This document shows positions 7,875 through 54,308 of a DNA stretch of 64,000 nt, piece after piece (position 1 is the first letter of the stretch; the number at the start of each line of letters is the position of its first letter). The stretch covers positions 1 to 64,000 of the forward strand of contig NZ_JAHXBF010000013.1 of NCBI RefSeq assembly GCF_020103695.1, read 5' to 3'. A program made the translations under genes and the position numbers. Source of the stretch: Hyalangium versicolor (GTDB lineage: Bacteria; Myxococcota; Myxococcia; Myxococcales; Myxococcaceae). The notes below the pieces were generated by a model that saw only the letters and a list, made by a program, of their open reading frames with translations, was not told the DNA's origin and did not search any database.

Positions 7875-7892
7875 GGTGCCGCAGCCCGAAGC

Positions 7893-8804
<912 letters not shown>

Positions 8805-8876
8805 CTCCCCCCCATCTTAAGGGCCGGTATTTCGTGGCGGCAAGCACACACACCGCCAATGTGGCACATGCCCCCT

Positions 8877-9926: not shown

Positions 9927-9995
9927 GAGCGGTCCTTCACTGACAAAGCCCGCCTTCCTTTACAAGCCTTGCGCGCGTAGCTAAGACCCCCCGGC

Positions 9996-17816: not shown

Positions 17817-18197
17817 TCAGTGGCGCGCGGACTCCCCGAGACTTTCCACGGCAGCGGACAGTCGGTCCACGTCGATGGGCTTGCGCAGCACCACGTCACA
17901 GTGCTCCGAGCCCTCCACCTGTGCGTAGCCGGAGACGAGGATGACACGGGCCTCGGGAGACAGCTCCTTCACCCGTTGGGCGAGCGCCGTGCCACACAGG
18001 CCTGGCAGTGACTCGTCCGTGACGACGACGTCTGGATGATCCGCTTCGAAAGCCGCCAGGCCCGAAAGCCCATCCCCCGCCGTGCTCACCTCGAAGTCGA
18101 CCTCCAGGATCTCCGCCAGGAGCTCCCGGCTGTCGCCATCGTCCTCGACCAGCAACACCCTGATGCGGTCCGTCCCAGTGCCCATGCGACTGAGCAA
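17817..18197 (-). CDS. Single-domain response regulator
   Basis: 126 residues, receiver only. It has the acidic pair (LLVEDDGDSRE), the phospho-acceptor Asp in VVVTDESLPG, and the conserved Lys in VVLRKPID. There is no output domain, so it would act by protein contact or as a phosphate sink. No kinase is adjacent. The start could also be ATG 18185, four codons further in. Confidence 0.85.
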   Translation of the reverse strand: MLSRMGTGTDRIRVLLVEDDGDSRELLAEILEVDFEVSTAGDGLSGLAAFEADHPDVVVTDESLPGLCGTALAQRVKELSPEARVILVSGYAQVEGSEHCDVVLRKPIDVDRLSAAVESLGESARH

Positions 18198-20820: not shown

Positions 20821-22470
20821 TCAGAGGGCGCGAGGCAGCACCACGCTGAAGCGTGCGCCCTCGCCCGGCTCTCCGCCCACCTCCAGCTTGCCGCCGTGCT
20901 CCTGGAGGATTCGCGCGGCGATGGCCAGCCCCAGGCCGGTGCCTCCCTCCTTGGTGGTGAAGTAGGGCTCGAAGATGCGGGCTCGGTGCTCGGGAGGAAT
21001 CCCCGGGCCGGTATCCTCCACCTCCACGATGGCGTCCGTCTCCGTGCCCTTCACCCGCACGCGCACGGAGCCACCCTTGTCCTTCATGGCCTCCTCCGCG
21101 TTCTTCACCAGGTTCACCAGCACCTGCGTGAGCTGGTCGCGGTCCGCGCGCGCCACCACGCCCGTCTGCAGCGTGGGCAGCAGCGTGATGCCCTCCGGCG
21201 GCGTGGCGTAGAGGGACAGCACGCTCTGCGCCAGCTCTCCCAGATCCACCGGCGCCAGCTGCGGCTTGGGCAGCCGCGCGAAGCGACTGAACTCGTCGAC
21301 GATCCTCCGCAGTCGATCCACCTCCTCCAGCACCACCGCGGCGCTGTCTCGGAAGAGAGTGGGGAAGCGTGCGTCCTGCGCGCTCTGCGCGGCCAGCAGC
21401 GTCTCCAGCGACATCTGGATGGGCGTGAGGGGGTTCTTGATCTCGTGCGCCAGCCGGCGCGCGACCTCCTGCCACGCGGCGATGCGCTCGCTGGCCACCA
21501 GACGCTCGGTGGTGGAGCGCAGCTCGGAGGTCATGTGATTGAAGGCTCGCACCAACTCCGCCACCTCACCGCTGGCCTGGGCCGTCACCTGCACGTCCCT
21601 GGCTCCTTCCCCCACGCGGCGAGCACCCTCGGTGAGCGCCTCCACGGGCCGGGTGATGCGGCGGGACATGAGCAGCCCCAGCAGCATCGCGAACGCCAGC
21701 CCGAAGCCGGCCAGTACGAGGAAGGCGTTGGTGACGCCGCGCTCCGCCTCCAGCACCGCGGCACGGCTGAAGGTGAGCCGCACCGCGGCCGCGTTCCCCA
21801 GGGGAATCACGCGCTCCACCGTGGGCGGAGCCGCACTGCCCGCCTGGGCAACCACCGTGTCTCCCGAGCGCAGCGACACCTGGGCCTGGGTGATGCGCGC
21901 CAGGTGCTGGGCGAGGCCCTCATCCAACTGCACCCCACCCACCACCCACAGCCTCAGGTTGCCGTAGTCCTTCGGGCGGGCGATGACGAGCGCGGGAACG
22001 TCTCGCAGCCCTGCGTCGCTTCGCACGCTCACTCGCGCCGACACGGGCTTGGAGGCCTCCTGCTGGGTGACGGCGAAGAGCTCGGGATCCGGATCGCCTC
22101 GGCGCGCCGGCAGATGGCCGGAGGACAGCGTGGTGCCCTGGCGATCGAAGAGGCTCAGCACCGTGAGGCCTCGGCTCTTCATCAGTCCCTCGGCGGTGTC
22201 GGCCTGGATGACGCGGGTGGGCGCTTCCTGCGCGTCCCGAGCCAGGTCCTCCATCGCCGTGCTATCCACCAGCTCCTCGATGGCGCGCTGAGCGCGCTCG
22301 GCGGAGCGCTCCAAAGCCTCCTGGGCGGAGGTGGTGGCGCCCTCCATCCGCGCGTCGAGTTCGCGCGAGAGGGTGGTGCGCAGGCGGCTGAGGGTGAGGG
22401 GGACCACGACGGCCAGAGGCACCAGCGCCAGCAGGGCAAAGGCGAGCGCGAGCCGGGTCCTCAATCGCAT
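20821..22470 (-). CDS. HAMP sensor histidine kinase, NtrB/NtrY-like (candidate CrdS)
   Basis: 549 residues. TM1 at 7-28, a periplasmic sensor region to about 247, TM2 at 248-268 and HAMP at 268-320. The dimerisation helix carries the phospho-His in RRLAHEIKNPLTPIQ (H342), and the HATPase domain has NLVKNAEEAM, DTGPGIP and GGTGLGLAIA. The HEIKNPLTPIQ box is of NtrB/NtrY type, matched to NtrC-like regulators. In M. xanthus the NtrB-type kinase CrdS phosphorylates CrdA, and I recall its gene lying in this neighbourhood; a CrdA-like regulator lies at 43816-45318. That identity is inferred. It follows the solute-binding protein gene by 13 bp, at the end of the PBP1A run. Confidence 0.85.
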   Translation of the reverse strand: MRLRTRLALAFALLALVPLAVVVPLTLSRLRTTLSRELDARMEGATTSAQEALERSAERAQRAIEELVDSTAMEDLARDAQEAPTRVIQADTAEGLMKSRGLTVLSLFDRQGTTLSSGHLPARRGDPDPELFAVTQQEASKPVSARVSVRSDAGLRDVPALVIARPKDYGNLRLWVVGGVQLDEGLAQHLARITQAQVSLRSGDTVVAQAGSAAPPTVERVIPLGNAAAVRLTFSRAAVLEAERGVTNAFLVLAGFGLAFAMLLGLLMSRRITRPVEALTEGARRVGEGARDVQVTAQASGEVAELVRAFNHMTSELRSTTERLVASERIAAWQEVARRLAHEIKNPLTPIQMSLETLLAAQSAQDARFPTLFRDSAAVVLEEVDRLRRIVDEFSRFARLPKPQLAPVDLGELAQSVLSLYATPPEGITLLPTLQTGVVARADRDQLTQVLVNLVKNAEEAMKDKGGSVRVRVKGTETDAIVEVEDTGPGIPPEHRARIFEPYFTTKEGGTGLGLAIAARILQEHGGKLEVGGEPGEGARFSVVLPRAL

Positions 22471-22483
22471 GGGGGACGCCTCC

Positions 22484-23872
22484 TTACTTGGGTGCCGCGG
22501 CGGGCGCCGGCTCGGTGGGCTGGATGTACACGCCGTCGAGCACGGGGAGCCCCTGGGCGTCCATCATGAGGCCTCCCAGCTCCGGCGCCACGCGCACTCC
22601 CAGCCCCTGTGCATAGAGGGGAAGGATCGGCACCGAGGGGCCCAGTGCCATGGCTCGTTCCCGGGCCCTTGCATCTCGCGCGGCCGCATCCGGCACGCCG
22701 CCGATGAGCGGTAGCTCCACGCCGAGCAGATCCTTCCGCCCGGCTGCGTCCAGGACCACGGCCAGCGCCGGGCCCGGCACGGGCGGCAGCAGCAGGGACT
22801 GGAGCATCAGATCGAAGTCTCCCTTGGCCCAGCGCGAGCGGAGGATGGTGCGAGGCTGCGGCTCCAGGGCGACCTTGTAGCCGCGATCGTGGAGCTTCAC
22901 CTGGATGCGCTCGGCCACCGCACGCTGATCCTCATTGGTGACGTCGTAGAGCAGTGTCACCGTCCTGCCTCCGCTCGAGGGCGGTGCGCTCGGACGAGGC
23001 TTGGGCGCTTGGGACAGCAACGCGGGCGGCAGCAGGTACGGCATGGGCACGGCCGGCGCACGGACGAAGAGGCGGGTGAGATCCTCGCGATCAATGGCGC
23101 TCTCGAAAGCCTGTCGGAAGTCCGCGGGCACTCGGCGCGGCGAGAAGGTGAGGTAGGTGGCGTAGAGGGCCACACCGGTGAGGCTTCCGGAATCCGGAAT
23201 CACACCCAGCTCCAGCTGCACCTCCCTGGGATTCATGGCCCACATCCGCGCGAGTCCGCGTTCATCCGTCGCGGTGAGCGTGAGGCGATCCAGGTAGGGC
23301 CGCCCCTCGGGGTAGCCGATTCGGGCCTCGAGCCGCCCCGGCGCGGCAGTGGCGGCAAACGGCCCTTGCGAGAGCGCGGTGGTGGGGAGTGGCACGGCGA
23401 GCGCGGGGTGGCACAGCGCGCGCTCCATGTCCGGCCACGGGAAGGACAGGGGCAGCTCCAAGGTGGTGCCGTTGGAGGAGAGCTGCCGGCCCTCCGTCTG
23501 CACGGGGAACAGCAGCGCGCGGTAGGGACTGGGCGCCTCGGGACCGGTGAATCGCGTCCACGCGCGGACCAGCGTGGAGGTCATCGCGAGCGAGGGCAGG
23601 GTGATGCGCACCGTCTGGCCCACGGGCCGGGACACTTCGCGGGCAAAGCTGAGGCGAGGGGCGCCGCTGGGGTCCAGCCGGCACACGGAGCGGGATTGCA
23701 GGCTGAAGAGCGTGGCGCGCACCGGCGAGTCCGCGAGGGTGGGATCGCCGAGGGGCTCGGAGGAGCCCGTGTGGGCCAGGCGCAATTCGCCCCCATAGGG
23801 GACGCGGCCGGCCGCGAGCGCGGAGGTGGCGCAGAGCAGGAGGAGGCAGGCGAGAGCGTGTCGGAGCGTCAT
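22484..23872 (-). CDS. Degenerate extracellular solute-binding protein (SBP_bac_5-like)
   Basis: 462 residues with signal peptide MTLRHALACLLLLCATSALAA. The layout is that of periplasmic peptide/nickel-binding proteins: YGGELRLAHTGSSEPLGDPT, a lobe with FRQAFESAIDREDLTRLFV (the usual 'RQAL..AIDR' segment), and a C-terminal lobe with RIQVKLHDRGYKVALE and GDFDLMLQSLLLP. It is shorter than the family norm and there is no ABC permease nearby. It overlaps the FG-GAP gene by 4 nt. A sensing role with the adjacent kinase is possible but unproven. Confidence 0.75.
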   Translation of the reverse strand: MTLRHALACLLLLCATSALAAGRVPYGGELRLAHTGSSEPLGDPTLADSPVRATLFSLQSRSVCRLDPSGAPRLSFAREVSRPVGQTVRITLPSLAMTSTLVRAWTRFTGPEAPSPYRALLFPVQTEGRQLSSNGTTLELPLSFPWPDMERALCHPALAVPLPTTALSQGPFAATAAPGRLEARIGYPEGRPYLDRLTLTATDERGLARMWAMNPREVQLELGVIPDSGSLTGVALYATYLTFSPRRVPADFRQAFESAIDREDLTRLFVRAPAVPMPYLLPPALLSQAPKPRPSAPPSSGGRTVTLLYDVTNEDQRAVAERIQVKLHDRGYKVALEPQPRTILRSRWAKGDFDLMLQSLLLPPVPGPALAVVLDAAGRKDLLGVELPLIGGVPDAAARDARARERAMALGPSVPILPLYAQGLGVRVAPELGGLMMDAQGLPVLDGVYIQPTEPAPAAAPK

Positions 23873-25281
23873 GGCGCACCCTGGCGCATGAGGAAGACTT
23901 CACCGGAGCCGTCCGGGAGCGCGAGCCCCACCAGCACCTCGCGATGCTTGTCCCCGTCCAGATCGGCGGTGACCACCTGGAGGGCTCGGCCTGGGGGAAG
24001 GGCGCTCTGCCAGAGCACTCCGTGGGTGGTGGGATCGTCTCCGGCGAGCGGGAAGACGCGCACCACGTCCGGGACGGGGAACACTTGAGGCGAGGTGGTG
24101 ATCAGCTCCGGCGTCCCATCCCCGTCGAGATCTCCGAGGGTGCTCCCGGCGCCGAGGCCCTGGATGCGAATAGGCGGGGCAGTAGGGCGCGGATACAGCG
24201 AGGCCGAGCCATCCAGGTGAACGAAGAGCATGCGCGGAGGGACCATGCTCGCGGTGGTGAAGGGCGCGGGGACATTGAGGATCCGCCCCTCTCCGAGCCG
24301 CACCTCGGCGATGAACGTGGTCTGTCCCTGGGTGAAGGTGCCGCGCTCGTTGGCGCCCAGCGGGGCTGAGTCGAGCGGGCCGAGGGGACGCAGGGCACCC
24401 TTGGGCTTGTCGAACACGAGCACCTCGCCATGCGAGTAGCGGGCGGACCAGGCCGCGATGCGCGCGGGCTGGGGGATGATGGCCACGGTGCCGAAGGGTT
24501 CGCGGGGTGGAGTCGCGCTTGGCGGGAGGCTGTCGAAGTCCCGCTGCGCCAGGAGGCGCCCGTCGTCGGCGAAGACGGAGACGGCTCGCTCGGTGAGGAC
24601 GATCACCTCATCCTTGCCATCCCCATCCAGATCGCCTGCGGCCAGGGCGGCAGGAGCCTGCTCGAGGTGGATCATCACCGCGCCCATGAGGCGCACGGCG
24701 CGTGGCCCGCTCGCTACGGCCATCGGGGACGAGGCGGACGTGAGCGGCGAGATGGCGGCGAGAGCCAGTGCTCCGGAATCCGCCTCCACCGATCGAGCCA
24801 GCGCGGCAGCCGGTGTGGTGGGACGGCTCGGGGTGTCCCCGGACCAGAAGTTCACCCAGGTGCCCAGCACATCGCCCCGGGCACTCACCTCTCCACCCTG
24901 CACGGAGACTGTGATGCGCACGAGCGAGCGAGCCCCGCGCTCCCGGGCGAGGGTTTCGGCGGCCTCGGGAGAGGGGGCATTCAGCACGACGGGACCCATC
25001 TCCTCGGCGGCGAGCCGTGAGGCCAGCACCGTCCCGAACGCGCGCTGCAACTCAGGAGCCGGGCTGCTCAGGTGCAGTGCGATGGGAGGCTCGGGCTTGA
25101 GCGCGAGCACGTCCTCGGCCACGAACTGGACGAGCTGTTCGATGGACGGTGGTCCCGCGGGAGTGGATGCGCTCGAACTGGCCGGAGCAGCGGCCTTCGT
25201 GCCGGCCGGAGCAACTGGAGGCTCGGCGGCGAAGGCGAGCGTGGACACCAGGAGCGTGGCGAAGGCTCGGCGCACTGTCAT
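23869..25281 (-). CDS. Exported FG-GAP/VCBS-repeat protein
   Basis: 470 residues with signal peptide (MTVRRAFATLLVSTLAFAAE). The N-terminal half has an alpha/beta segment (SIEQLVQFVAEDVLAL, ERGARSLVRITVSV). The second half carries FG-GAP-type calcium-binding blades: AAGDLDGDGKDEVIVL, LGDLDGDGTPELITT and TADLDGDKHREVLVGL. These are beta-propeller blades, usually for protein-protein contact outside the cell. The ends overlap both neighbours by 4 nt, so it belongs to a coupled operon with PBP1A and the binding protein. Confidence 0.8.
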   Translation of the reverse strand: MTVRRAFATLLVSTLAFAAEPPVAPAGTKAAAPASSSASTPAGPPSIEQLVQFVAEDVLALKPEPPIALHLSSPAPELQRAFGTVLASRLAAEEMGPVVLNAPSPEAAETLARERGARSLVRITVSVQGGEVSARGDVLGTWVNFWSGDTPSRPTTPAAALARSVEADSGALALAAISPLTSASSPMAVASGPRAVRLMGAVMIHLEQAPAALAAGDLDGDGKDEVIVLTERAVSVFADDGRLLAQRDFDSLPPSATPPREPFGTVAIIPQPARIAAWSARYSHGEVLVFDKPKGALRPLGPLDSAPLGANERGTFTQGQTTFIAEVRLGEGRILNVPAPFTTASMVPPRMLFVHLDGSASLYPRPTAPPIRIQGLGAGSTLGDLDGDGTPELITTSPQVFPVPDVVRVFPLAGDDPTTHGVLWQSALPPGRALQVVTADLDGDKHREVLVGLALPDGSGEVFLMRQGAP

Positions 25282-27887
25282 CTCCGCTTGCCGTCGTCGA
25301 GGAAGAAGTTGCTCGTGTCCACGGTCCCCACGGGTGGGGCCTCGGCGGTGGGCTGGGTGCCCTCGAGAAAGGGCTCGAGCCGTCCGGGCATGGAGTTGCC
25401 GGCGAGCAGGCCAGTGGCCGGATCGATGCGCACCTGGACGATGCCGGGCGGCACCTCGAAGTCGCGCACGGGCAGGCCCTGGTGCGCCACGCGCATGAAG
25501 TCCAACCAGATGGGCAGGGCGGCACGGCCACCCGTCTCTGAGCTGCCCAGGGGCGTGGCATCATCGAAGCCCACCCAGGCGCTGGCGACCCAGTCCATGG
25601 TGAAGCCGGAGAACCAGGTGTCCTTCGACTCGTTGGTGGTGCCCGTCTTGCCCGCTGCGGGGCGGTTCAGCTCCTTCACCGCGGTGGCCGTGCCCTCCTC
25701 CACCACGGCGCGCATCATCGTGACGGCGAGGTAGGCCACCGCCGGGGGCAGCGTCTCTTCGAAGGCAGGGGTGTGCTCCTCCAGCACCTTGCCCTGGGCG
25801 GTCTGGACGCGCAGCAGCAGGAGCGGCTCGGCATAGCGCCCCAGGGACTGGAGCGTTGCATAGGCATTGACGGCCTCGAGCATCGTCACCTCACCGGTGC
25901 CGAGCGCCAGCGTCAGGTTCTCCGGCATCGGCGAATGGATGCCCGCGCGCTTCGCATAGTCGATGGCCGCGGCGGGGGTGATGGCCTCGATCAGGCGCAC
26001 GGAGACGGTGTTCTTGGACTTGGTCAGGGCCGTGCGCAGCGTCATGGGGCCCTCGAACTTGCCGTCGAAGTTCTTCGGCTTCCACTGCTTGCCCGTGTAC
26101 GGGTCGCGGACGGCCTCGGGCGCGTCGTTCACCGTGCTCAGCGGCGTGAAGCGGCCGCTGCCCAGCGCGGCGGCATAGAGGAAGGGCTTGAAGGACGAAC
26201 CTGGCTGCCGATGGGCCTGGGTGGCGCGGTTGAAGGGCGAGCGTTCGAAGTCATAGCCACCCACCAGGGCCACCACGTTCCGGTTGGCCGGGTTGATGAC
26301 CACCAGTCCGCCCTGCACGACGGGGATTTGATCGAGCGTGGCCTCGATGTTGGCCGGAGCAGGCAGGGCCTTGAGGACGCGCACGCGCACCAACTGGCCC
26401 ACCTCGAACACGTCCGAGATGCTCGACGGGGCGCTCTTGCCCTTCTGCCGCGCCCACTTCACGGTGGGGAAGGAGAGTTCCGCGGTGCGGCCCACGAGAT
26501 CCACCCGGGCGATCCCCTTCTTGTCGTCCACCGAGGTGACATAGCCGGCCAGCCGTAAGCCCTCCTTCAGCGGGCGGAGCGGCACGGAGCCCACCAGGGC
26601 CTCCTCGGGGGACGGAGGTGCCTCGCCCTCGGGAGTGAGTTCCGGACGTTGCTCCTCCGCGCCCTCGTCCTCGTCGGTGGGCTTGGGCTCCGGGCTCACC
26701 TTGGCCAGCGGAGCCAGGTCCGCCACGTACTCCGAATCCTTCTGCCGCCGGCCCGCCTCCTCGATGCGATGGGCGATGAGGCCCTTGAGGCGCTCGAAGC
26801 GGCCGGCTTCCATCGTCCCCAGCGGGCCGCGATAGCCCTGGCGCCGATCCAACGCCTCCAGGCCGTTGCGCACCGACTCCTCCGCTGTGGCCTGCAGCTT
26901 GGGCACCATGGCGATCTCCACGCGCAGGCCGCCCTCGAGCACCGCCTCCTCGCCGTAGCGCTCGATGAGGGTGCGGCGGATCTCCTCGGCGTAATACGCG
27001 CCCACAGGGGGCGGGGGCCGAGGCGCCAGGGCGATGGGCTTGTCCAACTCCGGCTCCACCTTCTCCTTGGGGAGGAAGCCGTGCTGGATCAGCTGGCCCA
27101 GCACGTAGCGCTGGCGCGCCTTGGCGCGCACCATGTTCGTCTCGGGGTTGATGCGATGGGGCGACTGCGGCGTTCCCGCCAGCACCGCGGCCTCGCCGAT
27201 GCTCAGGTCCTTCGCGTGCTTGCCGAAGTAGTAGAGCGCCGCCTCCTCGAGCCCGTAGCGCCGCTGCCCGTAGTAGATCTGGTTGATGTAGAGGTTGAGG
27301 ATCTGATCCTTGGTGAGCGCCTGCTCCACACGCGGAGTGAGGATCCACTCGCGGATCTTCCGGCCCAGGCTGCGCTCGGGAGTGAGCAGCAGGTTCTTCA
27401 CCACCTGCTGCGTGATGGTCGATGCGCCGGACTTGCGGCTGCCGGGGATGAGGTTCTTGAGCGCCGCGCGGGTGATGCCGAAGAAGTCCAGGCCCTCGTG
27501 CTTGTAGAAGTCCGCGTCCTCGGCGGCGAGGAACGCGTCGCGCACGTGCTGAGGCAGCTCCTCGATCTGCACGAGCGTGCGGCGCTCCTTGTAGAACTCG
27601 GCGCACAGCGAACCATCACCGCAGGTGACCTTCGTCACTTGGGGAGGCTGGTAGTGGCGCAGGGCCTCCACGGAGGGCAGGTCCCGGCTGAAGTAGAGGT
27701 AGGCACCCACGCCCGCGGCCACCGCCAGCACCAGACCCACGGCCCCGACGATGAGCAGCCGCTTCGCCCACTTCCAGATGCGGGCACCGAGGCCTGGGCT
27801 CGCGGGCGGTGGGGCCAGCGGCGGCGCGGGAGGCTCGGGAGTGGAGGGGACTTCAGGAGGTTGGGGCATCGCTCGGGCCGGAGTCAT
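25278..27887 (-). CDS. Penicillin-binding protein 1A (bifunctional peptidoglycan synthase)
   Basis: Class A PBP: polymerises lipid II and cross-links peptides. The 869-residue protein has a Pro-rich cytoplasmic N-terminus, one TM at about 42-68, a GT51 domain (AAEDADFYKHEGLDFFGITR with catalytic Glu; GASTITQQVVKNLLL), an OB-like insert (residues about 420-520 including an acidic Glu/Pro stretch), and a transpeptidase domain with SSFKP (Ser nucleophile), SKN and KTGTT. All key residues are present. The start could be ATG six codons in. It is coupled to the FG-GAP and solute-binding genes downstream, which is not the usual mrcA context. Confidence 0.95.
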   Translation of the reverse strand: MTPARAMPQPPEVPSTPEPPAPPLAPPPASPGLGARIWKWAKRLLIVGAVGLVLAVAAGVGAYLYFSRDLPSVEALRHYQPPQVTKVTCGDGSLCAEFYKERRTLVQIEELPQHVRDAFLAAEDADFYKHEGLDFFGITRAALKNLIPGSRKSGASTITQQVVKNLLLTPERSLGRKIREWILTPRVEQALTKDQILNLYINQIYYGQRRYGLEEAALYYFGKHAKDLSIGEAAVLAGTPQSPHRINPETNMVRAKARQRYVLGQLIQHGFLPKEKVEPELDKPIALAPRPPPPVGAYYAEEIRRTLIERYGEEAVLEGGLRVEIAMVPKLQATAEESVRNGLEALDRRQGYRGPLGTMEAGRFERLKGLIAHRIEEAGRRQKDSEYVADLAPLAKVSPEPKPTDEDEGAEEQRPELTPEGEAPPSPEEALVGSVPLRPLKEGLRLAGYVTSVDDKKGIARVDLVGRTAELSFPTVKWARQKGKSAPSSISDVFEVGQLVRVRVLKALPAPANIEATLDQIPVVQGGLVVINPANRNVVALVGGYDFERSPFNRATQAHRQPGSSFKPFLYAAALGSGRFTPLSTVNDAPEAVRDPYTGKQWKPKNFDGKFEGPMTLRTALTKSKNTVSVRLIEAITPAAAIDYAKRAGIHSPMPENLTLALGTGEVTMLEAVNAYATLQSLGRYAEPLLLLRVQTAQGKVLEEHTPAFEETLPPAVAYLAVTMMRAVVEEGTATAVKELNRPAAGKTGTTNESKDTWFSGFTMDWVASAWVGFDDATPLGSSETGGRAALPIWLDFMRVAHQGLPVRDFEVPPGIVQVRIDPATGLLAGNSMPGRLEPFLEGTQPTAEAPPVGTVDTSNFFLDDGKRR

Positions 27888-27967
27888 GGGGCTCGGTGAG
27901 AAGGGGACGCACGTTAGACCGATGTACGGGCAACGGGAACCGTCAGCTCCAACGCCCGTTTCGGGCC

Positions 27968-28981
27968 CTACTGGCCCGAGTCCTCGGTGAGCAGCCCCCC
28001 GGGCCCATCACCCTGGGACGACTCGGAGGGTATGACACCGAGGCTTGCCACCTTGTTCATGCGGTCCACGTTGACGCGCGCCTTGACATAGCGCGGGGAG
28101 AGCCGGGTGGCGGTGGCATAGGCGGCCTGGGCCTCGTCGGTGCGGCCGAGACGCTCGTAGGCCACGCCGAGGTTGTTGTGGACATAGGCCACCTGGGGCA
28201 GCAGGGCGGCGGCGCGGGCGAGCACCTCGGCGGCCTTGGCATTCTCGTTGGCGCGCAGCCAGGCGAGGCCGAGGTTGTTGAGGGCGTAGCCGTGCTCGGG
28301 TGCCAGGTGGACGGCCTGCTGGAAGCGGAGGATGGCCTCGGAGAGGTTGCCCGCGGCCATGTACGCACGCCCGAGCACCAGATAGGCATCTGGCTCCTCG
28401 GGATCTCGCGAGATGGCCACCTCGCCCACGCGGATGGCCTCGGTGGAGCGGCCCACGGAGATGAGGAGGCGTGCCTGCTGGACAAGCGGGGAGGCCTCGT
28501 CCGGATTCAGGCGCCCGATTTGGTCGAGGGCGAGCACGGCGAGCTCCGTCTTTCCCGTGAGGCGTCCCAGGCGGGCAATGGCGTTCAGGGTCTCTTCATC
28601 CTCGGGGTTGTCGTAGAGGGCGCGTCGGTACTCGGTGAGGGCACCGGAGAGATCGCCCAACTCGTGCAGCGTCCGGGCGCGCACGCCGTGGTTCACGCGG
28701 CTCAGGTGCCCATGGGCGAGGGGCAGCGTATCCGCAGGGACGGGTGGCTCCTCCACTGGGGGTGCGAGCGGCTTGGGCGCCGAGCGGGGCAGGGCGAGGA
28801 AGGAGGGGATGAGCGCCTCGACAGGAGAGGACACCTCGACAGCCGTGTCGGACGCAGTGAGCCGCGAGGGATACGAACCCTGGAGACCCTGGTGGGCGAT
28901 GAGCGCCAGGGCGACCAGCGCGGGGACGAGCGCCGAGGTCAGGTGGGGCTTCGAGGGGCAGGACACAGGGGCCTTCATCAT
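27968..28981 (-). CDS. TPR-repeat protein, membrane-anchored or exported
   Basis: 337 residues. A hydrophobic segment (about 14-34, LTSALVPALVALALIAHQGL) is followed by a Pro-rich stretch. Six or more tetratricopeptide repeats run from about residue 100 to 310, for example AYLVLGRAYMAAGNLSEAIL, ALNNLGLAWLRANENAKAAE and VHNNLGVAYERLGRTDEAQ. TPRs build binding scaffolds. It is on the same strand as PBP1A, 80 bp before it, and may organise the same envelope complex. No catalytic motif is visible. Confidence 0.85.
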   Translation of the reverse strand: MMKAPVSCPSKPHLTSALVPALVALALIAHQGLQGSYPSRLTASDTAVEVSSPVEALIPSFLALPRSAPKPLAPPVEEPPVPADTLPLAHGHLSRVNHGVRARTLHELGDLSGALTEYRRALYDNPEDEETLNAIARLGRLTGKTELAVLALDQIGRLNPDEASPLVQQARLLISVGRSTEAIRVGEVAISRDPEEPDAYLVLGRAYMAAGNLSEAILRFQQAVHLAPEHGYALNNLGLAWLRANENAKAAEVLARAAALLPQVAYVHNNLGVAYERLGRTDEAQAAYATATRLSPRYVKARVNVDRMNKVASLGVIPSESSQGDGPGGLLTEDSGQ

Positions 28982-29121
28982 GACGGTCTCCTGCCCGGTC
29001 TCATTGCGATGCCCGTGCCAGGAGGATTTCCCTCGAAAGCGGGGAGAAGTGTGTCCAGAGGGCCGCAGGGGGTAGGGAAAAGCGTGGAAGGGACGCGGGT
29101 GACGTGCGACGGTGCCGCGCG

Positions 29122-35691: not shown

Positions 35692-35877
35692 GGCCGCGAT
35701 TGTATGGATGCTGGCCGGGCAGGCGACTGCAATCGGAAGCGAGAGGGGGGATGCAGGCGTTATCGCAGGAGTTCCGTTTCGTGACGCACTGCTCCGACAT
35801 GCCAACACCCGTGAGAGGCCCCTCAGAGGGCTCCTGGGGAAGGCAGCGGGGTGATCGCGAGACCGAGGTGAGACGAC

Positions 35878-36729: not shown

Positions 36730-36760
36730 CTCCTTCGGAGGATTCCTTGCGGTGGCCGTG

Positions 36761-43815: not shown

Positions 43816-45318
43816 TCAGGTGGTGGCGTCACCGGACGGGCCGCGCCGCAGGCCCAGTGCCTTCATCTTCTTGTAGAAGTGCCCACGCTCCAGATCCAGC
43901 AGGCGCGCGGCCTCCGTCACGTTGTCCTGCGTGTGCGCCAGCGTGAAGAGGATGATCTCTCGCTCCGCGTCCTCCACCTGCTCTCGGAAGGTACGGTCCG
44001 CCCGGGGATGGAAGCCGGTGGGAGCAGCAGCCGGCTCTGGTGGACGCGGCGCAACCGCTTCGCTCACCGCAGGAACAGGCGCGGAGGCGGTGGCCACCGG
44101 CAAGGGGGGCGGAGAGGCGGGTAGGGCGCTCACGGGCAAAGGTGAGAGCGGGACACGGCCTCGTGGCAGCAACTCCAGCGCCTCTGTGCCCGAGACGGTC
44201 GGTCCCTCGCAGAGGATGGCCAGCCGCTCCACCAGGTTGCGCAGCTCCCGCACATTGCCCGGATAGTCATAGGAGGCCATCACCGACAGGGCCTCAGGGG
44301 ACAGCTTCAACGGCTTGCGCCCATTCCGCGCGCACGCCTCCTGCAGGAACGTGTCGATCAGATCCGGCAGGTCCTCGCGCCTCTCCCGCAGCGGCGGCGA
44401 GTGAATCTGCACCACGTTGATGCGGTAGTAGAGGTCCTCGCGGAAGTGGCCCCCTGCGATCTCCTTCTCCAGGTTCTTGTTCGTCGCGGCGATGACGCGC
44501 ACGTCCACCTTGATCGTCTCCGCGCCGCCCACGCGCTCCAACTCGCCCTCCTGCAGCACCCGCAGCAGCTTGGCCTGCATGGCCGCCGGCATGTCGCCGA
44601 TCTCGTCCAGGAAGAGCGTCCCCTCGTGCGCCAGCTCGAACTTCCCTCGCCTCACGCTCACCGCACCCGTGAACGCGCCCTTCTCGTGGCCGAACAGCTC
44701 GCTCTCGATCAGCTCGTGCGGCACCGCCGCGCAGTTGAGCTTCACGAACGGACCCGCCTTGCGCCTCGAGTTCTGGTGCAGCGCCCGCGCAATCAGCTCC
44801 TTGCCCGTGCCGTTCTCTCCCGTGATCAGCACACGGCCCTCGGACGGCGCCGTGCGCTGGATCAACGAGAAGATCCGCTGCATGGCCGGGCCCGTGCCCA
44901 CCATGTCGTAGCGGCCCAGCTGTGCCCGCAGTTCCTGCAACTCCTCGATCACCGCCTGGTGCTTGAGCGCGTTGCGCAGCGCCACCAGCAGCCTGTCCCG
45001 CGCGAGGGGCTTCTCCAGGAAGTCCCTCGCCCCCAACTGCGTGGCCTTCACCGCCGTGTCGATGGTGCCGTGCCCCGACATCATGATGACGGGCAGCTCC
45101 GGCTTGAGCTCGTGCAGGCGCGCCAGAGCCGTCAACCCGTCCATGTCCGGCATCTTCACGTCCATCAGCACCGCGTCCACCGGCCGTGCCGAGATGACGT
45201 CCAGCGCCACCTGCCCGGAGCTCGCCAGCTCCGTCCGGTAGCCTGCCAACTGGAGGGACTGGCTCAGCGTGAGCAGGATGTTCTTCTCGTCATCGACGAT
45301 GAGGACGGATGCGGGCAT
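43816..45318 (-). CDS. crdA: NtrC-family response regulator (CrdA-like)
   Basis: 500 residues. Receiver 1-120 with acidic pair VDDEKN and phospho-Asp D53 (AVLMDVKMPDMDG). The sigma-54 AAA domain has Walker A GENGTGKELIA, ESELFGHEKGAFTGAV (GAFTGA loop) and LFLDEIGDMP. A Pro/Ala-rich linker of about 60 residues precedes a Fis-type HTH (NVTEAARLLDLERGHFYKKM). It is divergent from crdB and next to the Che3-type operon, which lacks CheY; in M. xanthus CrdA is the output of Che3 and controls developmental genes. The start at ATG 45318 (MPASVLIVDDEKN) is chosen for the receiver's beginning. Symbol rests on context and family. Confidence 0.85.
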   Translation of the reverse strand: MPASVLIVDDEKNILLTLSQSLQLAGYRTELASSGQVALDVISARPVDAVLMDVKMPDMDGLTALARLHELKPELPVIMMSGHGTIDTAVKATQLGARDFLEKPLARDRLLVALRNALKHQAVIEELQELRAQLGRYDMVGTGPAMQRIFSLIQRTAPSEGRVLITGENGTGKELIARALHQNSRRKAGPFVKLNCAAVPHELIESELFGHEKGAFTGAVSVRRGKFELAHEGTLFLDEIGDMPAAMQAKLLRVLQEGELERVGGAETIKVDVRVIAATNKNLEKEIAGGHFREDLYYRINVVQIHSPPLRERREDLPDLIDTFLQEACARNGRKPLKLSPEALSVMASYDYPGNVRELRNLVERLAILCEGPTVSGTEALELLPRGRVPLSPLPVSALPASPPPLPVATASAPVPAVSEAVAPRPPEPAAAPTGFHPRADRTFREQVEDAEREIILFTLAHTQDNVTEAARLLDLERGHFYKKMKALGLRRGPSGDATT

Positions 45319-45531: not shown

Positions 45532-46284
45532 ATGCGGCGAATTTCGATGGTGGCAGGGCTCGCTCTCGCCATGGCTCTGATGACGGGCTGCCCCAAGCCC
45601 TACCCCAACTGCGAGAACGACGAGGCCTGCAAGGAGCACGGCGAGGTCTGCGTCCAGGGCACCTGCCAGGAGTGCGCCACCGACGCCAACTGCAAGGACG
45701 GCTTCACCTGCCAGGCCAACAAGTGCGTGCCCAAGGGCCCCGAGTGCACCCTGGACAATCAGTGCGGCTCGGGCCGCATCTGCGAGGCCGGCAAGTGCGC
45801 CCCCGCCCAGTGCAAGGGCGATGACCAGTGCAACGGCGGCAAGTGCCAGGGCGGCCGCTGCCAGGCCCCCGAGAATACCTGCACCACCAACTCCGACTGC
45901 GGCGAGGGCCAGCAGTGCCAGGCCGGCAAGTGCGTCTCGGCCGGTGCCCAGGAGTGCAACTGGGAGCCCGTCCGCTTCGGCTTCAACGAGGCCACCCTCT
46001 CCTCCGAGGGCCAGAGCCGTCTGTCCGAGCTGGTTGCCTGCATGAAGGCCACCAAGGTCACCGGGAAGATCACCCTCGAGGGCCATGCCGACGAGCGCGG
46101 TACCGAGGAGTACAACCTCCAGCTCTCCAACCGCCGCGCCGCCGCCGTGAAGAAGTACCTCACCACGCTCGGCATCGCAGCCAAGAGCCTGGACACCGTG
46201 GGCTACGGGGAGACTCGCCCGGTCAACCAGGCGGCAGACGAGGAAGCGTGGGCTCAGAACCGCCGCGTCGAGTTTCGCCGCTGA
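45532..46284 (+). CDS. crdB: Cys-rich OmpA/Pal-like lipoprotein (CrdB-like)
   Basis: 250 residues. Leader MRRISMVAGLALAMALMTGC ends in a lipobox. The next 125 residues carry repeated Cys modules (CENDEACKEHGEVCVQGTC, TLDNQCGSGRICEAGKC and others; four or five modules), a Dickkopf-like disulfide pattern common in myxobacterial surface proteins. The last 110 residues are a Pal/OmpA domain (GKITLEGHADERGTEEYNLQ, NRRAAAVKKYL, ENRRVEF-like end). GGGAGG is 5 nt before ATG 45532. It heads the Che3-type operon. CrdB is my name for it by position; I recall a lipoprotein there in M. xanthus. Confidence 0.75.
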   Translation: MRRISMVAGLALAMALMTGCPKPYPNCENDEACKEHGEVCVQGTCQECATDANCKDGFTCQANKCVPKGPECTLDNQCGSGRICEAGKCAPAQCKGDDQCNGGKCQGGRCQAPENTCTTNSDCGEGQQCQAGKCVSAGAQECNWEPVRFGFNEATLSSEGQSRLSELVACMKATKVTGKITLEGHADERGTEEYNLQLSNRRAAAVKKYLTTLGIAAKSLDTVGYGETRPVNQAADEEAWAQNRRVEFRR

Positions 46285-46305: not shown

Positions 46306-46740
46306 ATGGGCGTCTCTGAGTCCGAAGGGCGACAATCCTACCTTGTGTTTGCATGTGGTAGCAGTTGGTACGCGGTACCTGCGGAGAGCGCGGCGGAGGT
46401 GGTCACCTTCCCCGAGCTGACGCGGGTACCGGGTGCCCCGGCCTACCTGCTGGGCGTATTCGCGCACCGGGGAGAAGTCATTCCCGTGGTGGACATGGGG
46501 CTGCTGGTGGGAACCGGCAGCCAGTCCACGCGGCGCGCGGTGCTCGTCCGCCTGCCTCGAGGGTCGCTGGCGCTCACCGCCAGCACCGTGGCGGGAGTCT
46601 CCCTGGTCGCGGGCAGCTTGGAGCCGTTGGGCGCCAGCGGTGTGCACCTGCACCTGCGCGGCCCGGCCAAGGGTGCCCAGCGGGATGTGGCGGTGATTGA
46701 CGCCGAAGGGCTGTTCGATCACCTCAGCCAGGGGGCCTGA
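46306..46740 (+). CDS. cheW: CheW-type coupling protein
   Basis: 144 residues. The CheW fold is clear: SYLVFACGSSWYAVPAESAAEVV, RVPGAPAYLLGVFAHRGEVI and PVVDMGLLVG. It links receptors to CheA. It lies 21 bp after crdB and 3 bp before the next CheW-like gene. Called cheW3 in the M. xanthus Che3 system by context. Confidence 0.88.
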   Translation: MGVSESEGRQSYLVFACGSSWYAVPAESAAEVVTFPELTRVPGAPAYLLGVFAHRGEVIPVVDMGLLVGTGSQSTRRAVLVRLPRGSLALTASTVAGVSLVAGSLEPLGASGVHLHLRGPAKGAQRDVAVIDAEGLFDHLSQGA

Positions 46741-46743
46741 GCC

Positions 46744-47118
46744 ATGGCTGGGCTGAGGGTCAGTGGGACACTCCTGTGTCATGCCGGCGAGTACCGCATC
46801 GCGTTCCCCGCGGTGGACGTGGCCGTCATTGATGCGCCCGCGCTCCATGCGGGGCGTGCACGTTCGGCGCGCCAGGCCTTCGGAGAGGCCGGGGGCTCGG
46901 CTCGGGTGCTGCTGGCGCCCTCCGGTGAGACGGTGGGGGTGGACACGTTGGAGATCGACGCGGAGATGCACCGCGTGCTGCCCATGCCCGCGCTGATGGA
47001 GCGGATGGCCGGGGGCAGCCTGCTGGGGTTCCTCTTCATTCGCGGCGAGCTGTGGCCGCTGGTGCGGCTGGTGGAGTTCGAGCACTTCCTCGCGAGTGCT
47101 TCCCGGGAGGCGGCATGA
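46744..47118 (+). CDS. Shortened CheW-like protein
   Basis: 124 residues, CheW-like but diverged: TLLCHAGEYRIAFPAVDVAV resembles the first strands, and GFLFIRGELWPLVRLVEFEHF the later 'RG..IPVVDL' segment. It is shorter than a normal CheW and lacks parts of the second barrel. It overlaps the first MCP gene by 4 nt. It may be a second coupler with specialised partner, as FrzB is in the Frz system. Confidence 0.7.
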   Translation: MAGLRVSGTLLCHAGEYRIAFPAVDVAVIDAPALHAGRARSARQAFGEAGGSARVLLAPSGETVGVDTLEIDAEMHRVLPMPALMERMAGGSLLGFLFIRGELWPLVRLVEFEHFLASASREAA

Positions 47119-48905
47119 GCTCGGGGCTGAAGGGGCTGACGCGGTGGTTGACCCGGCCGTCCTGGCTGGGCGGTGGCGTGGGCGTGGTGCTGGCGCTGAC
47201 CCACGGGCAGTTGGAGTACTCGCCGCCCGAGGGTGCATGGCTCTCCTTCCTCATGTTGGTGGCCCTGGCGTTGGTGCTGAGCTTGGGGCTCACCCGGTTG
47301 CTCGAGCGGCGGGCGATGCGGGTGCTGAGGGCCGTGGAGGGGGGCCGCCTGCCGTCCACGCCGGACAATCTTCGCCAGGCGCTCCAGGAGGCGCGCGCCA
47401 TCCCCGAGCGCTGCTTCTGGTTCACGCTGCTGGGCTGGTTGGGCGGCACCTTGTTGGTGTCGCTCGCCTTCCCGCCGCTGGTGGACCAGCCGTGGCTGCT
47501 GAGCGTGCGCATCGCGCTGGTGGTGCTGGCGCTGGGGCCCTTGAGCGCGCTGCTCGTGTACCTGTTGGTGGTGCGCCGCAGCCGCACGGCCGCTGAGCGC
47601 ATCGCGAACGAGGGCCTGTCCGCGCTGGAGGTCATCACCGCGGTGCCGCCCCAGCGGCAGAACATCCGTCGGCGGCTGCTCATCTTCACCGCCATCGCCG
47701 TGCTCTGCCCGTCCATCTTCATCCTGGACGTCTCCGTGGCGCGCGCGGTGCGCGTCATGGACGAGATCGTTCAGGCCGGCAACCACGCGGCGCAGGAGGC
47801 GGTGGTGGCCCAGGCCCAGAGCGAGCACAGCGTCTCGTTGGGGTTGCTGTCGGCGTTCGTCATCCTGCTGGTGTTGGGCACGGCCTACGCCGCCGGCGCC
47901 GCGCTGTCCGAGCCGCTGAGCGCCATCACCGAGGACGCCACGCGCATCGCCAAGGGCGACCTGCGCCCGCCTCGCGTCATCCCTGCCGAAGACGAGGTGT
48001 GGGCCGCGTCGGCCGCCTTCGTGCAGATGCAGGCCCAGTTGGGGCAGGCGCTGGCGCAGATGCGGCGTGCGGGCATGCAGATCTCCAGCACGACCGAGCA
48101 ACTGGTGGCGACTTCCTCGGAGCAGGAGATGGGCGCGGACGAGCAGTCCAGCTCTCTCAATGAGACGAGCGCTACCACGGAGGAGCTGGCCCGGAGCGCG
48201 CAGCAGATCGCCGGCAACGCCGAGTCCGTGGCGGGTATCGCCGAGAGGACGTTCGCCGCGGCCCAGGGCGGCCAGCGCAACGCCGCTGCCTTCCTCACCG
48301 CCATGCAGCGGATGAAGGAGGACAACCAGTCCATCGCGGACGCGGTGGTGCGGCTGAACAAGCGGGTGCAGCAGATCGGCAAGGTGGTCGAGTTCATCAA
48401 CGAGATCGCCGACAAGACGGACCTGCTGGCGCTCAACGCGGAGCTGGAGGGCACCAAGGCGGGTGAGGTGGGCCGGGGCTTCTCACTGGTGGCCGCGGAG
48501 ATGCGCCGCCTGGCCGAGAACGTCATCCGTTCCACGCGCACCATCGAGCAGCTCATCGAGGAGATCCGCGATGCCACGCACGCGGCGGTGATGGCCACGG
48601 AGGCCGGGCTGAAGACGACCGAGGCGGGCACGCTGCTCGCGGCGCAGGTGGACGAGAGCCTGAGCCTCATCCTCGAGCTGGCACGGCAGACGTCCCACGC
48701 CGTGCGCTCCATCTCGCTGGCCACCCAGCAGCAGCAGACGGGCACCGACCAGCTCGCCGCCGCCATGGGAGACATCCTCCGGGTGACGGAGCAGAACGCC
48801 TCGGCGACCAAGCAGATGGTGGCGGCCAATAGCGATTTGTCCGCACTGGCGAGGGACTTGAAACTCGTGGTGGAGCGCTTCCAACTGGCCGGGAGAGAGG
48901 GCTAG
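47115..48905 (+). CDS. Methyl-accepting chemotaxis protein, six-TM (Mcp3A-like)
   Basis: 596 residues. The N-terminal half has about six hydrophobic segments (for example FLMLVALALVLSLGL, ALVVLALGPLSALLVYLLVV, LLIFTAIAVLCPSIFIL) with little periplasmic sequence, so it may sense membrane or cell-envelope state and not a soluble ligand. A HAMP-like segment follows (PLSAITEDATRIAKGDLRP), then the signalling coiled coil. The CheA/CheW contact tip reads LLALNAELEGTKAGEVGRGF instead of the usual LLALNAAIEAARAGE. GGGAGG precedes ATG 47115, which overlaps the CheW-like stop. It is a tandem paralogue of the next gene. Confidence 0.9.
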   Translation: MSSGLKGLTRWLTRPSWLGGGVGVVLALTHGQLEYSPPEGAWLSFLMLVALALVLSLGLTRLLERRAMRVLRAVEGGRLPSTPDNLRQALQEARAIPERCFWFTLLGWLGGTLLVSLAFPPLVDQPWLLSVRIALVVLALGPLSALLVYLLVVRRSRTAAERIANEGLSALEVITAVPPQRQNIRRRLLIFTAIAVLCPSIFILDVSVARAVRVMDEIVQAGNHAAQEAVVAQAQSEHSVSLGLLSAFVILLVLGTAYAAGAALSEPLSAITEDATRIAKGDLRPPRVIPAEDEVWAASAAFVQMQAQLGQALAQMRRAGMQISSTTEQLVATSSEQEMGADEQSSSLNETSATTEELARSAQQIAGNAESVAGIAERTFAAAQGGQRNAAAFLTAMQRMKEDNQSIADAVVRLNKRVQQIGKVVEFINEIADKTDLLALNAELEGTKAGEVGRGFSLVAAEMRRLAENVIRSTRTIEQLIEEIRDATHAAVMATEAGLKTTEAGTLLAAQVDESLSLILELARQTSHAVRSISLATQQQQTGTDQLAAAMGDILRVTEQNASATKQMVAANSDLSALARDLKLVVERFQLAGREG

Positions 48906-48909
48906 CCGA

Positions 48910-50724
48910 ATGAGCACGAGCGGCACCGCGCGGCGGGCTTCCTTCAGCCGGCACCTGGCGATCCCTGTCCCCGTGGGCAACCTCGTGGGGGCCGCGCTGG
49001 CGTTCTATTACGCCTGGCTCACCATGGAGCAGAAGCTGGACCGTGCTTTCCACCTGCTCATGTCCCTGGGCGCGCTGGCCTGCGTGCTCTCCACGGTGGC
49101 TGGCGGCGGCATGCTGCTGCGGCGCCTGCGCGTGCTGCGCGGGCTGGAGCGCGGCGATCTGTCTCCTACGCCGGAGAATCTGGCCCAGGCCGCGGTCGAG
49201 GCCACCAGCGCCGCGGACACCACGTTCGTCAAGTCATTGATGATGTGGCTCCTCGCCACGGTGGTGCTGGGCGCCCTGGTGTGTACGGTCGATGGCGTGA
49301 GCTGGCACACGGGCCTGAGGGTGGCCTACCTGGGGCTGCTCTTCGGGCCCATCACCGCGCTGCTCGTCCACTGCCTGGTGACGTTGCGGGCCCGCCAGGT
49401 GGTGTTGTGGCTGAGCGAGCTCGGGTTGACGCAGGCGCAGATCATCTCCGCCATGCCCCGGCGCGCGCAGATCCGCGCCCGGCTGGTGCTCTTCACCGGC
49501 ATCGCCGTGGTGACGCCCGCGGTGCTCTCCTCCAACCTCGCCTCGGCGCTGGCGGAGCGCGCCTATGAGCAGGTGCTCGCCACACCCGCGCACGAGCAGG
49601 CGGTGCGCGTGCACGAGCTGCGCGTGGAAGCCTTCACCTCGGGTGGGGCGCTGTGCCTGCTCGTGTTCGGTCTGGCGCTCACCACCGCGTATCTGGGGGG
49701 CACGCTGGTGGGACGCCCCATCCGTGAGCTCGCCGATGAGGCGCGGCGCATCGCGGATGGAAATCTCGCCGCCCCTCGGCTCATCCCCGCGGAGGATGAG
49801 GTGTGGGGTGTCTCCGCCGCCTTCGCGATGATGCGGGCGCACCTGGCGGATGTGCTCTCGCAGTTGCAGCGTGCGGGAGCGCAGATCAGCGCCACCACGG
49901 AGGAGATACTGGCCACCTCGGGCCGCTACGAGGCCGGTGCCGCCGAGCAGGCCAGCTCGCTGGACGAGACGAGCGCCACCACCGAGGAGCTGGCCCGGAG
50001 CGCGCGGCAGATCGCGGAGAACGCGGGTTCGGTGGCGGAGATCGCCCAGCGCACCCTCGCGGCCGCCCAGGGAGGGCAGGGCAGTGCCGAGGCCTTCCTG
50101 GCCTCCATGAGCCGCATGCGCAACGACAACCAGGCCATCGCCTCGGCCGTCACCCGGTTGAACAAGCGGGTGCAGCAGATCGGCAAGGTGGTCGAGTTCA
50201 TCAACGGCGTGGCCGACAAGTCGGACCTGCTGGCGCTCAACGCGGAGCTGGAGGGCACCAAGGCGGGCGAGGTGGGCCGGGGCTTCTCGCTGGTGGCCGC
50301 GGAGATGCGCCGCCTGGCCGAGAACGTCCTGGAGTCCACCAAGGAGATCGAGGGGCTCATCGAGGAGGTTCGAGAGGCCTCGCGCGCGGCGGTGGCCGCC
50401 ACCGAGGGAGGCGTGCGCGCCACGGACACTGGCACCCAGCTCGCGCAGCAGGTCTCCGAGTCCCTCAAGCAGATCCTGGATCTGGCCGGGCAGACGTCCG
50501 ATGCCGTGCGCTCCATCTCGCTGGCCACTCAGCAGCAGCAGACGGGCACCGACCAGCTCGCCGATACCATGGCGGACATCCTCCGCATCACCCAGCAGAG
50601 CCTCAACGCCACCAAGCAGGTGAGCACCGCCAATGGTGACCTGCTGGTGCTCGCGCTGGACCTGCGCAACGTGGTGGAGCGGTTCCAGATCAGCCAGCAG
50701 CCGCCGCCGAGGAGTGAAGGGTGA
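48910..50724 (+). CDS. Methyl-accepting chemotaxis protein, multi-TM (Mcp3B-like)
   Basis: 604 residues. Same layout as its neighbour: about six membrane segments in the first 270 residues, HAMP-like PIRELADEARRIADGNLAA, then the signalling domain with the variant tip LLALNAELEGTKAGEVGRGF. The signalling halves of the two proteins are much more alike than their membrane halves. The last codons overlap cheA (GTGA), so the two are coupled. Confidence 0.9.
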   Translation: MSTSGTARRASFSRHLAIPVPVGNLVGAALAFYYAWLTMEQKLDRAFHLLMSLGALACVLSTVAGGGMLLRRLRVLRGLERGDLSPTPENLAQAAVEATSAADTTFVKSLMMWLLATVVLGALVCTVDGVSWHTGLRVAYLGLLFGPITALLVHCLVTLRARQVVLWLSELGLTQAQIISAMPRRAQIRARLVLFTGIAVVTPAVLSSNLASALAERAYEQVLATPAHEQAVRVHELRVEAFTSGGALCLLVFGLALTTAYLGGTLVGRPIRELADEARRIADGNLAAPRLIPAEDEVWGVSAAFAMMRAHLADVLSQLQRAGAQISATTEEILATSGRYEAGAAEQASSLDETSATTEELARSARQIAENAGSVAEIAQRTLAAAQGGQGSAEAFLASMSRMRNDNQAIASAVTRLNKRVQQIGKVVEFINGVADKSDLLALNAELEGTKAGEVGRGFSLVAAEMRRLAENVLESTKEIEGLIEEVREASRAAVAATEGGVRATDTGTQLAQQVSESLKQILDLAGQTSDAVRSISLATQQQQTGTDQLADTMADILRITQQSLNATKQVSTANGDLLVLALDLRNVVERFQISQQPPPRSEG

Positions 50725-53180: not shown

Positions 53181-53248
53181 AGGCCACCCGGAGACAGGCG
53201 AAGTCATTGGGTATACTCCTCGTGTCGCGCACGGGGTATGCACAGGTA

Positions 53249-54304: not shown

Positions 54305-54308
54305 CGGC

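What the first reader, a model, noticed from the sequence alone, without database searches (positions are those of the whole stretch)
20821..28981. PBP1A operon with FG-GAP protein, degenerate binding protein and sensor kinase
Four-base overlaps tie PBP1A, an FG-GAP beta-propeller protein and a transporter-less solute-binding protein together, followed at 13 bp by a histidine kinase. A wall synthase joined to a binding protein and kinase suggests that a cell-wall fragment is sensed and reported.
Basis: inference. Interest (0 to 1): 0.6.

Follow-up and report, generated by a model that had tools for sequence, protein, structure and literature searches.

The report
Wall-synthase operon carrying CrdS kinase
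A bacterial cell-wall building enzyme is encoded together with three helper proteins and a sensor kinase whose known partner switches on fruiting-body genes, which suggests that this kinase, whose signal I found nowhere named, may be watching the state of the cell wall.

Summary
The run is real: TPR protein, PBP1A, beta-propeller (FG-GAP) protein, binding-fold protein and histidine kinase. PBP1A to kinase keep their order in 29 of 40 Myxococcales loci (8 of the other 11 are cut by contig ends) and in other classes. Propeller, binding-fold protein and kinase are gained or lost together (111 genomes all three, 71 none, 13 partial, of 195); PBP1A stays without them.

The kinase can be named: it matches Myxococcus CrdS (H371), and its partner CrdA (D53, beside the Che3 cluster) lies in the same window at 43816-45318. 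A close CrdA relative is found in 18 of 18 cassette genomes and 0 of 16 cassette-free ones. A sigma-54-type promoter precedes the operon in 24 of 31 and 7 of 7 loci, against 1 of 16 cassette-free PBP1A genes.

Best reading: a PBP1A-coupled wall-surveillance system with a CrdS-CrdA-sigma-54 loop, propeller and binding-fold protein being periplasmic partners, as FecB and a propeller are for AftB in mycobacteria. Muropeptide sensing is unproven and somewhat disfavoured. Kinase and regulator are already known; the wall connection looks new, but the key 2011 paper could not be read.

The parts
29005..29020 (-). sigma-54-type (-24/-12) promoter-like site TGGCACGGGCATCGCA, 39 bases (from its 5' end) before the TPR start codon
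   Evidence: the only site with one mismatch in the window; about 1 site scoring 1.5 or better expected per window in Markov sequence; conserved in relatives
27968..28981 (-). TPR protein, first gene of the operon; lipobox-like N-terminus in 11 of 21 relatives, not seen in the window copy
25278..27887 (-). class A penicillin-binding protein (PBP1A family): glycosyltransferase, PCB_OB and transpeptidase domains
   Evidence: TIGR02074 above cut-off; one of several class A-like genes of the genome
23869..25281 (-). periplasmic protein: alpha/beta N-domain (residues about 46-176) plus beta-propeller (about 195-470), TolB-like layout, no lipobox
   Evidence: AlphaFold2 mean pLDDT 86.5; best Foldseek hit E. 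coli TolB, E 1.2e-8, TM 0.32; propeller Z up to 20.2
22484..23872 (-). shortened solute-binding-protein fold (SBP_bac_5), no transporter genes seen beside it
   Evidence: pLDDT 90.9; Z up to 28.7
20821..22470 (-). CrdS-type sensor histidine kinase: periplasmic sensor, HAMP, HisKA (H342), HATPase
43816..45318 (-). CrdA-type NtrC response regulator (500 aa, D53), probable partner of the kinase, 15 kb upstream on the same strand
45532..46284 (+). OmpA-family protein at the start of the Che3-like cluster (CrdB-like; that name is recalled)
46306..46740 (+). 144-aa ORF in the place and of the size of CheW3 (145 aa in M. xanthus); not scanned
   Evidence: by position and length only
47052..50724 (+). 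two methyl-accepting chemotaxis proteins (47052-48905, start uncertain; 48910-50724), Mcp3-like
50721..55982 (+). CheA3-like (50721-53180), CheB3-like (53207-54304), CheR3-like (54309-55982)
   Evidence: gene order as in the M. xanthus che3 tables

Best explanation
The operon is the sensing arm of the CrdS-CrdA two-component system and is built around a class A wall synthase. PBP1A polymerises and cross-links peptidoglycan; the TPR protein, the TolB-like propeller protein and the orphan binding-fold protein are periplasmic partners of PBP1A and/or of the CrdS sensor domain. When PBP1A or the wall is in a particular state (synthesis stalled, wall being dismantled or strained), these partners change how they contact the periplasmic domain of CrdS, which moves from phosphatase to kinase and phosphorylates CrdA. 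CrdA~P with sigma-54 RNA polymerase then transcribes this operon (a feedback loop) and, in Myxococcus, developmental genes, with CheA3 of Che3 as a second control on CrdA. Shown in print: CrdS as kinase and phosphatase of CrdA, and the Che3 input (PMC3510030: abstract, introduction and passages). Shown here by sequence: gene unit, joint presence and absence, identity of kinase and regulator, sigma-54-type site. Inferred: the wall signal, the contacts among the periplasmic proteins, CrdA acting at this promoter.
For: Conserved run in 29 of 40 order loci and all four genes in 11 of 20 further loci taken from weaker or more distant hits (5 of the 20 are unrelated binding proteins). SBP, propeller and kinase sensor all present in 111 and all absent in 71 of 195 genomes, 13 partial (six weak SBP hits dropped). 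NtrC-type regulator upstream of PBP1A on the same strand in 9 loci of three families; its close relative in the own genome is in this window (63%, next paralog 48%). A relative at 55% or more in 18 of 18 cassette genomes tested and in 0 of 16 cassette-free genomes (best 52%). Sigma-54-type site (2 mismatches or fewer) in 24 of 31 plus 7 of 7, against 1 of 16 cassette-free PBP1A genes and 1.2-2.4% of random stretches. CrdS numbering H371 reproduced in 4 of 9 Myxococcus-type loci by an in-frame ATG; CrdA D53 reproduced. Precedent for propeller plus orphan binding protein plus envelope glycosyltransferase: MMAR_1667, FecB, AftB (passages of PMC12802301).
Against: No experiment ties CrdS to the wall; the papers I could read tie it to starvation and development. 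The kinase is missing beside an otherwise present run in G060, and SBP plus kinase occur without PBP1A in view in G072. PBP1A carries no extra domain that goes with the cassette. Sigma-54 promoters need activator sites, which I did not seek. Where I scanned before PBP1A in L074, L078, L079 and L084 there was no good site. The 18-to-0 CrdA result depends on an identity cut read off afterwards. Relatedness of the genomes inflates the co-occurrence counts.
Confidence: 0.58

Rival explanations
1. Muropeptide receptor: the binding protein captures a wall fragment in its cleft and presents it to the kinase.
For: Gene unit and fold; MppA (murein tripeptide) and DppE (murein tripeptide complex) are among the matches.
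Against: Those matches are tied with nickel, opine, heme and peptide binders (Z 25-29). The family lacks a 20-25 residue stretch kept by all four paralogs, and the ADYPDP-type motif, which however only 2 of the 4 paralogs have (the motif's role as peptide anchor is recalled). It is the weakest of five SBP_bac_5 matches in the genome, 33 against 180-298 bits.
Confidence: 0.15
2. Purely an Lpo-like PBP1A activator set: TPR, propeller and binding-fold proteins switch PBP1A on, and the kinase is in the operon only so that CrdS/CrdA can autoregulate; CrdS senses something else, such as starvation.
For: Known class A PBP regulators are made of the same kinds of pieces: LpoA is TPR plus a periplasmic-binding-protein domain, LpoB resembles the TolB N-domain, LpoP and CpoB are TPR (passages of PMC4632607 and PMC7267771). 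CrdS becomes a kinase on starvation (PMC3510030).
Against: Kinase, propeller and binding-fold protein are absent together in 71 of 195 genomes, and PBP1A was still present in 20 of 21 such genomes searched, which suits a shared sensing job better. No lipobox on propeller (0 of 32) or binding-fold protein (0 of 35).
Confidence: 0.2
3. Ordinary co-expression of unrelated envelope genes, with no functional tie between kinase and synthase.
For: Operons can hold unrelated genes; PBP1A lives on alone in cassette-free genomes.
Against: Fixed order across classes with 4-base overlaps, joint absence with the regulator and the promoter site.
Confidence: 0.05

Closest known systems
CrdS-CrdA with Che3 of Myxococcus xanthus
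   Same: Same kinase and regulator by motif numbering (H371, E372, I373, N375; D53) and by che3 neighbourhood.
   Different: The papers I could read describe starvation and development, not PBP1A; the operon link and the sigma-54-type site are not in PMC3510030 (0 hits for penicillin and for operon).
FecB / MMAR_1667 (Rv3035) / AftB and LpqZ / AftA of mycobacteria
   Same: Orphan binding protein, with a beta-propeller in the FecB case, attached to an envelope glycosyltransferase (PMC12802301 passages).
   Different: Different binding-protein family, different enzyme, no kinase.
LpoA/LpoB/LpoP/CpoB regulators of class A PBPs
   Same: TPR, periplasmic-binding-protein and TolB-N-like building blocks acting on class A PBPs.
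   Different: Here separate genes in one operon with the PBP and a kinase; no lipobox on two of the three; the binding protein is of family 5.
VxrAB (WigKR) of Vibrio cholerae
   Same: Two-component system that answers wall damage and stimulates wall synthesis (abstract of PMC10460444).
   Different: Not known to me to be encoded with its target synthase; no binding-fold or propeller partner named in what I read.
NtrYX of Rhodobacter sphaeroides
   Same: NtrC-type two-component system with peptidoglycan genes among its direct targets (abstract and passages of PMC7240162).
   Different: Different genes; that kinase has a PAS domain.

Membership tests
CrdS | HisKA motif numbered H371-E372-I373-N375, with V365, R368, L369, P376, L377, P379, I380 | tested here: met
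   in 4 of 9 Myxococcus-type loci (L201, L204, L205, L206) an in-frame ATG gives H371; residues fit (L043). From the MRLRT start it is H342. Published numbers from PMC3510030.
CrdS | phosphorylates and dephosphorylates CrdA | not testable with these tools
   needs biochemistry; orthologous regulator present
CrdA | NtrC domains, phospho-acceptor D53, beside che3 | tested here: met
   MXAN_5153 = crdA from a table in PMC8570273, che3 = MXAN_5144-5151 from tables in PMC3945109
ABC-transporter binding protein, SBP_bac_5 | Pfam SBP_bac_5 match and fold | tested here: met
   (31 of 34 members match at E 1)
ABC-transporter binding protein, SBP_bac_5 | permease and ATPase genes alongside | tested here: not met
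   none among the window genes scanned around it; flanks in relatives not scanned gene by gene
TolB | TolB_N Pfam match | tested here: not met
   none of 31 members; every one of 39 genomes has a TolB_N protein elsewhere
TolB | alpha/beta N-domain plus propeller layout | tested here: met
   Foldseek rank 1 is TolB, TM only 0.32; hhalign score 23.4 against at most 20.5 in 40 column-shuffled controls, probability only 2.8%
LpoB | outer-membrane lipoprotein with TolB-N-like domain | tested here: not met
   lipobox in 0 of 32 propeller proteins; no profile match to E. coli LpoB
LpoA | TPR and binding-protein domains fused in one lipoprotein | tested here: not met
   separate genes here
sigma-54-dependent operon | conserved -24/-12 element | tested here: met
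sigma-54-dependent operon | CrdA binding upstream | not tested
   no binding-site model; needs ChIP or footprinting

The most novel reading that the evidence does not exclude
CrdS reads the working state of PBP1A itself: propeller and orphan binding-fold protein form a relay between synthase and sensor, so that the myxobacterial developmental timer CrdSA/Che3 is an ancient, phylum-wide wall-integrity checkpoint later borrowed for fruiting-body timing, triggered when peptidoglycan is dismantled during starvation.
Probability: 0.35. Interest if true: 0.78.

Novelty: new variant of a known kind. Interest (0 to 1): 0.62.

Why it matters
I found no named signal for CrdS in the papers I could read. 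If right, the signal is the state of the wall or of one synthase, which would join peptidoglycan synthesis to the decision to build fruiting bodies, and would give the phylum its own way of watching or regulating a class A PBP, with a binding-fold protein and a propeller. Every step can be tested with simple gene removals in M. xanthus laboratory strains.

Tried and rejected
Rejected: FG-GAP protein as TolB itself (true TolB elsewhere). A PBP1A docking domain that goes with the cassette: none seen. The stand-alone receiver at 17817-18197 as main partner: found downstream of the kinase in 10 loci only, whereas the NtrC-type gene tracks the cassette. The operon PBP1A as PBP1a2 of PMC10475089 (passages): its catalytic residue is E97 there, and no start codon gives 97 in the eight Myxococcus-type loci where the gene was found by motif; so PBP1a1 is likelier, not proven. 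hhalign of the propeller protein's N-domain with TolB was weak and with LpoB gave nothing. VIA-align rows for the propeller protein cover the propeller only, so the N-domain is barely tested; LpoB was not among the rows, which excludes nothing. PDB search by single sequence gave nothing for the binding-fold protein. Pfam gave only weak Cache/CHASE4 hints for the sensor domain.

Not-in-print searches: (FG-GAP, penicillin-binding protein, Myxococcus) found 0 papers; (MXAN_5153 and 5183-5186) found 2, neither on this operon in the passages read; (CrdS with peptidoglycan and related terms) listed no paper on both. Willett and Kirby 2011 (PMC3147164) is not held; it may already note the neighbours of crdS.

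Full report
What is there. On the minus strand at 28981-20821 lie a TPR protein, PBP1A, an FG-GAP beta-propeller protein, an SBP_bac_5-like protein and a histidine kinase, with two 4-base overlaps and a 13-base gap as described. The downstream neighbour is convergent and belongs to the MXAN_5187 family, so the genome is myxobacterial.

Conservation. I searched the binding-fold protein in 59 genomes (40 with a match) and fetched 40 loci. By tblastn 29 of 40 show PBP1A, FG-GAP, SBP and kinase in that order and strand; 8 of the other 11 are cut by contig ends; in L067, L069 and L070 the propeller and/or binding-fold gene was too diverged. Profile searches later placed the missing genes between PBP1A and kinase in the genomes of L067 and L069, but found no propeller gene in that of L070, G041. 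A profile search over 195 genomes of the phylum found the binding-fold family in 124 at E 1e-8. Of 20 further loci from the weaker hits, 11 show all four genes in order, 5 are unrelated binding proteins without the run, and 4 are partial: L073 and L081 at contig ends, L083 (G072) SBP and kinase only, L084 (G060) no kinase.

Joint presence. With profiles for the propeller protein and the kinase sensor domain, 111 of 195 genomes have all three, 71 none and 13 one or two. For this I dropped six weak SBP hits (G042, G047, G051, G172, G182, G183); four of them were looked at and show no cassette (L085, L086, L087, L090), two were not looked at. Several of the partial 13 end at contig edges. In genomes without the cassette PBP1A remains (20 of 21 searched, at E 1e-60), and in the 13 of 19 fetched loci with at least 3 kb downstream in view none of the cassette genes follows it (L135 has an unrelated kinase hit on the other strand). 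Relatedness means these counts are not independent events.

Kinase and regulator. The kinase has every catalytic box and an NtrB/NtrY-like HEIKNPLTPI motif. I looked for a partner. In L067, L068, L069, L074, L089 and L082 an NtrC-type gene lies upstream of PBP1A on the same strand, and in L046, L048 and L051 it lies 0.25-2.5 kb upstream; five of the first six were scanned and have Response_reg, Sigma54_activat and HTH_8. Its closest relative in the own genome is in this very window, 43816-45318 minus (63% over residues 1-394, E 5.8e-164; next paralog 48%, 2.9e-120). In G013, G014, G016, G020, G028 and G034 it is also upstream on the same strand, at about 2.5 to 36 kb by coordinates; in G035, G041, G062 and G064 it is on another contig. 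In 13 of 13 cassette genomes (one is the query's own genome) and 5 of 5 more the best match is 55-100% identical; in 16 of 16 cassette-free genomes it is 52% or less, the level of paralogs, or not reported at E 1e-110.

Naming them. The window regulator has D53 and stands beside an OmpA-family gene, two MCPs, CheA, CheB and CheR, the order of M. xanthus che3, MXAN_5144-5151 (tables in PMC3945109, passages). MXAN_5153, next to it, is crdA (table in PMC8570273, passages). The published CrdS has H371, E372, I373 and N375, and CrdA has D53 (PMC3510030: abstract, introduction and passages). In 4 of 9 Myxococcus-type loci an ATG 29 codons upstream gives exactly H371. That crdS is MXAN_5184 is my recollection and comes from no call. 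In print, CrdS is kinase and phosphatase of CrdA, CheA3 adds to this control, and starvation favours the kinase state.

Promoter. TGGCACGGGCATCGCA lies 39 bases before the TPR start and is the only one-mismatch sigma-54-type site in the window (the consensus is recalled). Within 250 bases before the first operon gene a site with at most two mismatches occurs in 24 of 31 loci, against 1.15% of random stretches. In TPR-first loci of other families it occurs in 7 of 7; among five more cassette loci where I scanned before PBP1A, L089 has one and L074, L078, L079 and L084 do not; in cassette-free genomes 1 of 16, with 2.4% of random stretches. The sites are lined up.

The periplasmic proteins. Models: propeller protein mean pLDDT 86.5, binding-fold protein 90.9. 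The first has an alpha/beta domain and a propeller; Foldseek rank 1 is E. coli TolB (E 1.2e-8, TM 0.32), and the profile score against TolB is above 40 shuffles but weak. The second is a family-5 binding-protein fold (3rqt Z 28.7, 407 residues, 4.2 A), but short: an alignment with the genome's four other family-5 proteins shows a stretch of about 20-25 residues missing, and in Myxococcaceae an N-lobe hairpin. LpqW, an SBP-fold protein that I recall to act in lipomannan synthesis, is among the rows (2grv, Z 26.5).

Mechanism. Known regulators of class A PBPs use TPR, binding-protein and TolB-N-like domains (PMC4632607 and PMC7267771, passages). In mycobacteria the orphan binding protein FecB and the WD40 propeller MMAR_1667 co-purify with the arabinosyltransferase AftB, and the canonical pocket is poorly conserved (PMC12802301, passages). 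By analogy I propose that propeller and binding-fold protein are partners of PBP1A and of the CrdS sensor. During starvation M. xanthus degrades its peptidoglycan (PMC12265050, passages), a possible signal for CrdS; this step is inference.

Verdict. The two-component system is known; its place in a phylum-wide PBP1A operon with a sigma-54-type promoter appears new, with the reservation that the 2011 paper was not readable.

Noticed in passing
window 17817-18197 (-): Stand-alone receiver-domain protein three genes downstream of the kinase, on its strand, found downstream of the kinase in 10 of the loci searched, 95% identical in L031; could be a second target of the kinase.
   Followed up: partly
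L089 (G090) 5974-8903: Propeller and binding-fold genes match in pieces in different frames, so they may be frameshifted or decaying there.
   Followed up: no
L084 (G060) and L083 (G072): Exceptions: L084 has PBP1A, propeller and SBP but no kinase found; L083 has SBP and kinase without PBP1A or propeller in view.
   Followed up: no
L070 (G041) 3398-10264: PBP1A, SBP and kinase with a 1.7-kb space where the propeller gene should be, and no recognisable propeller protein; G041 also has a second, weak TolB_N match.
   Followed up: no
window 33298-36834 (-), 40675-42942 (+), 42964-43791 (+): Large GH31 glycosidase, subtilase with Ig-like domains, and SRAP protein between the two halves of the system.
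   Followed up: no
window 18840-20819 (+): MXAN_5187-family protein of unknown function, convergent with the kinase and beside it in many relatives.
   Followed up: no
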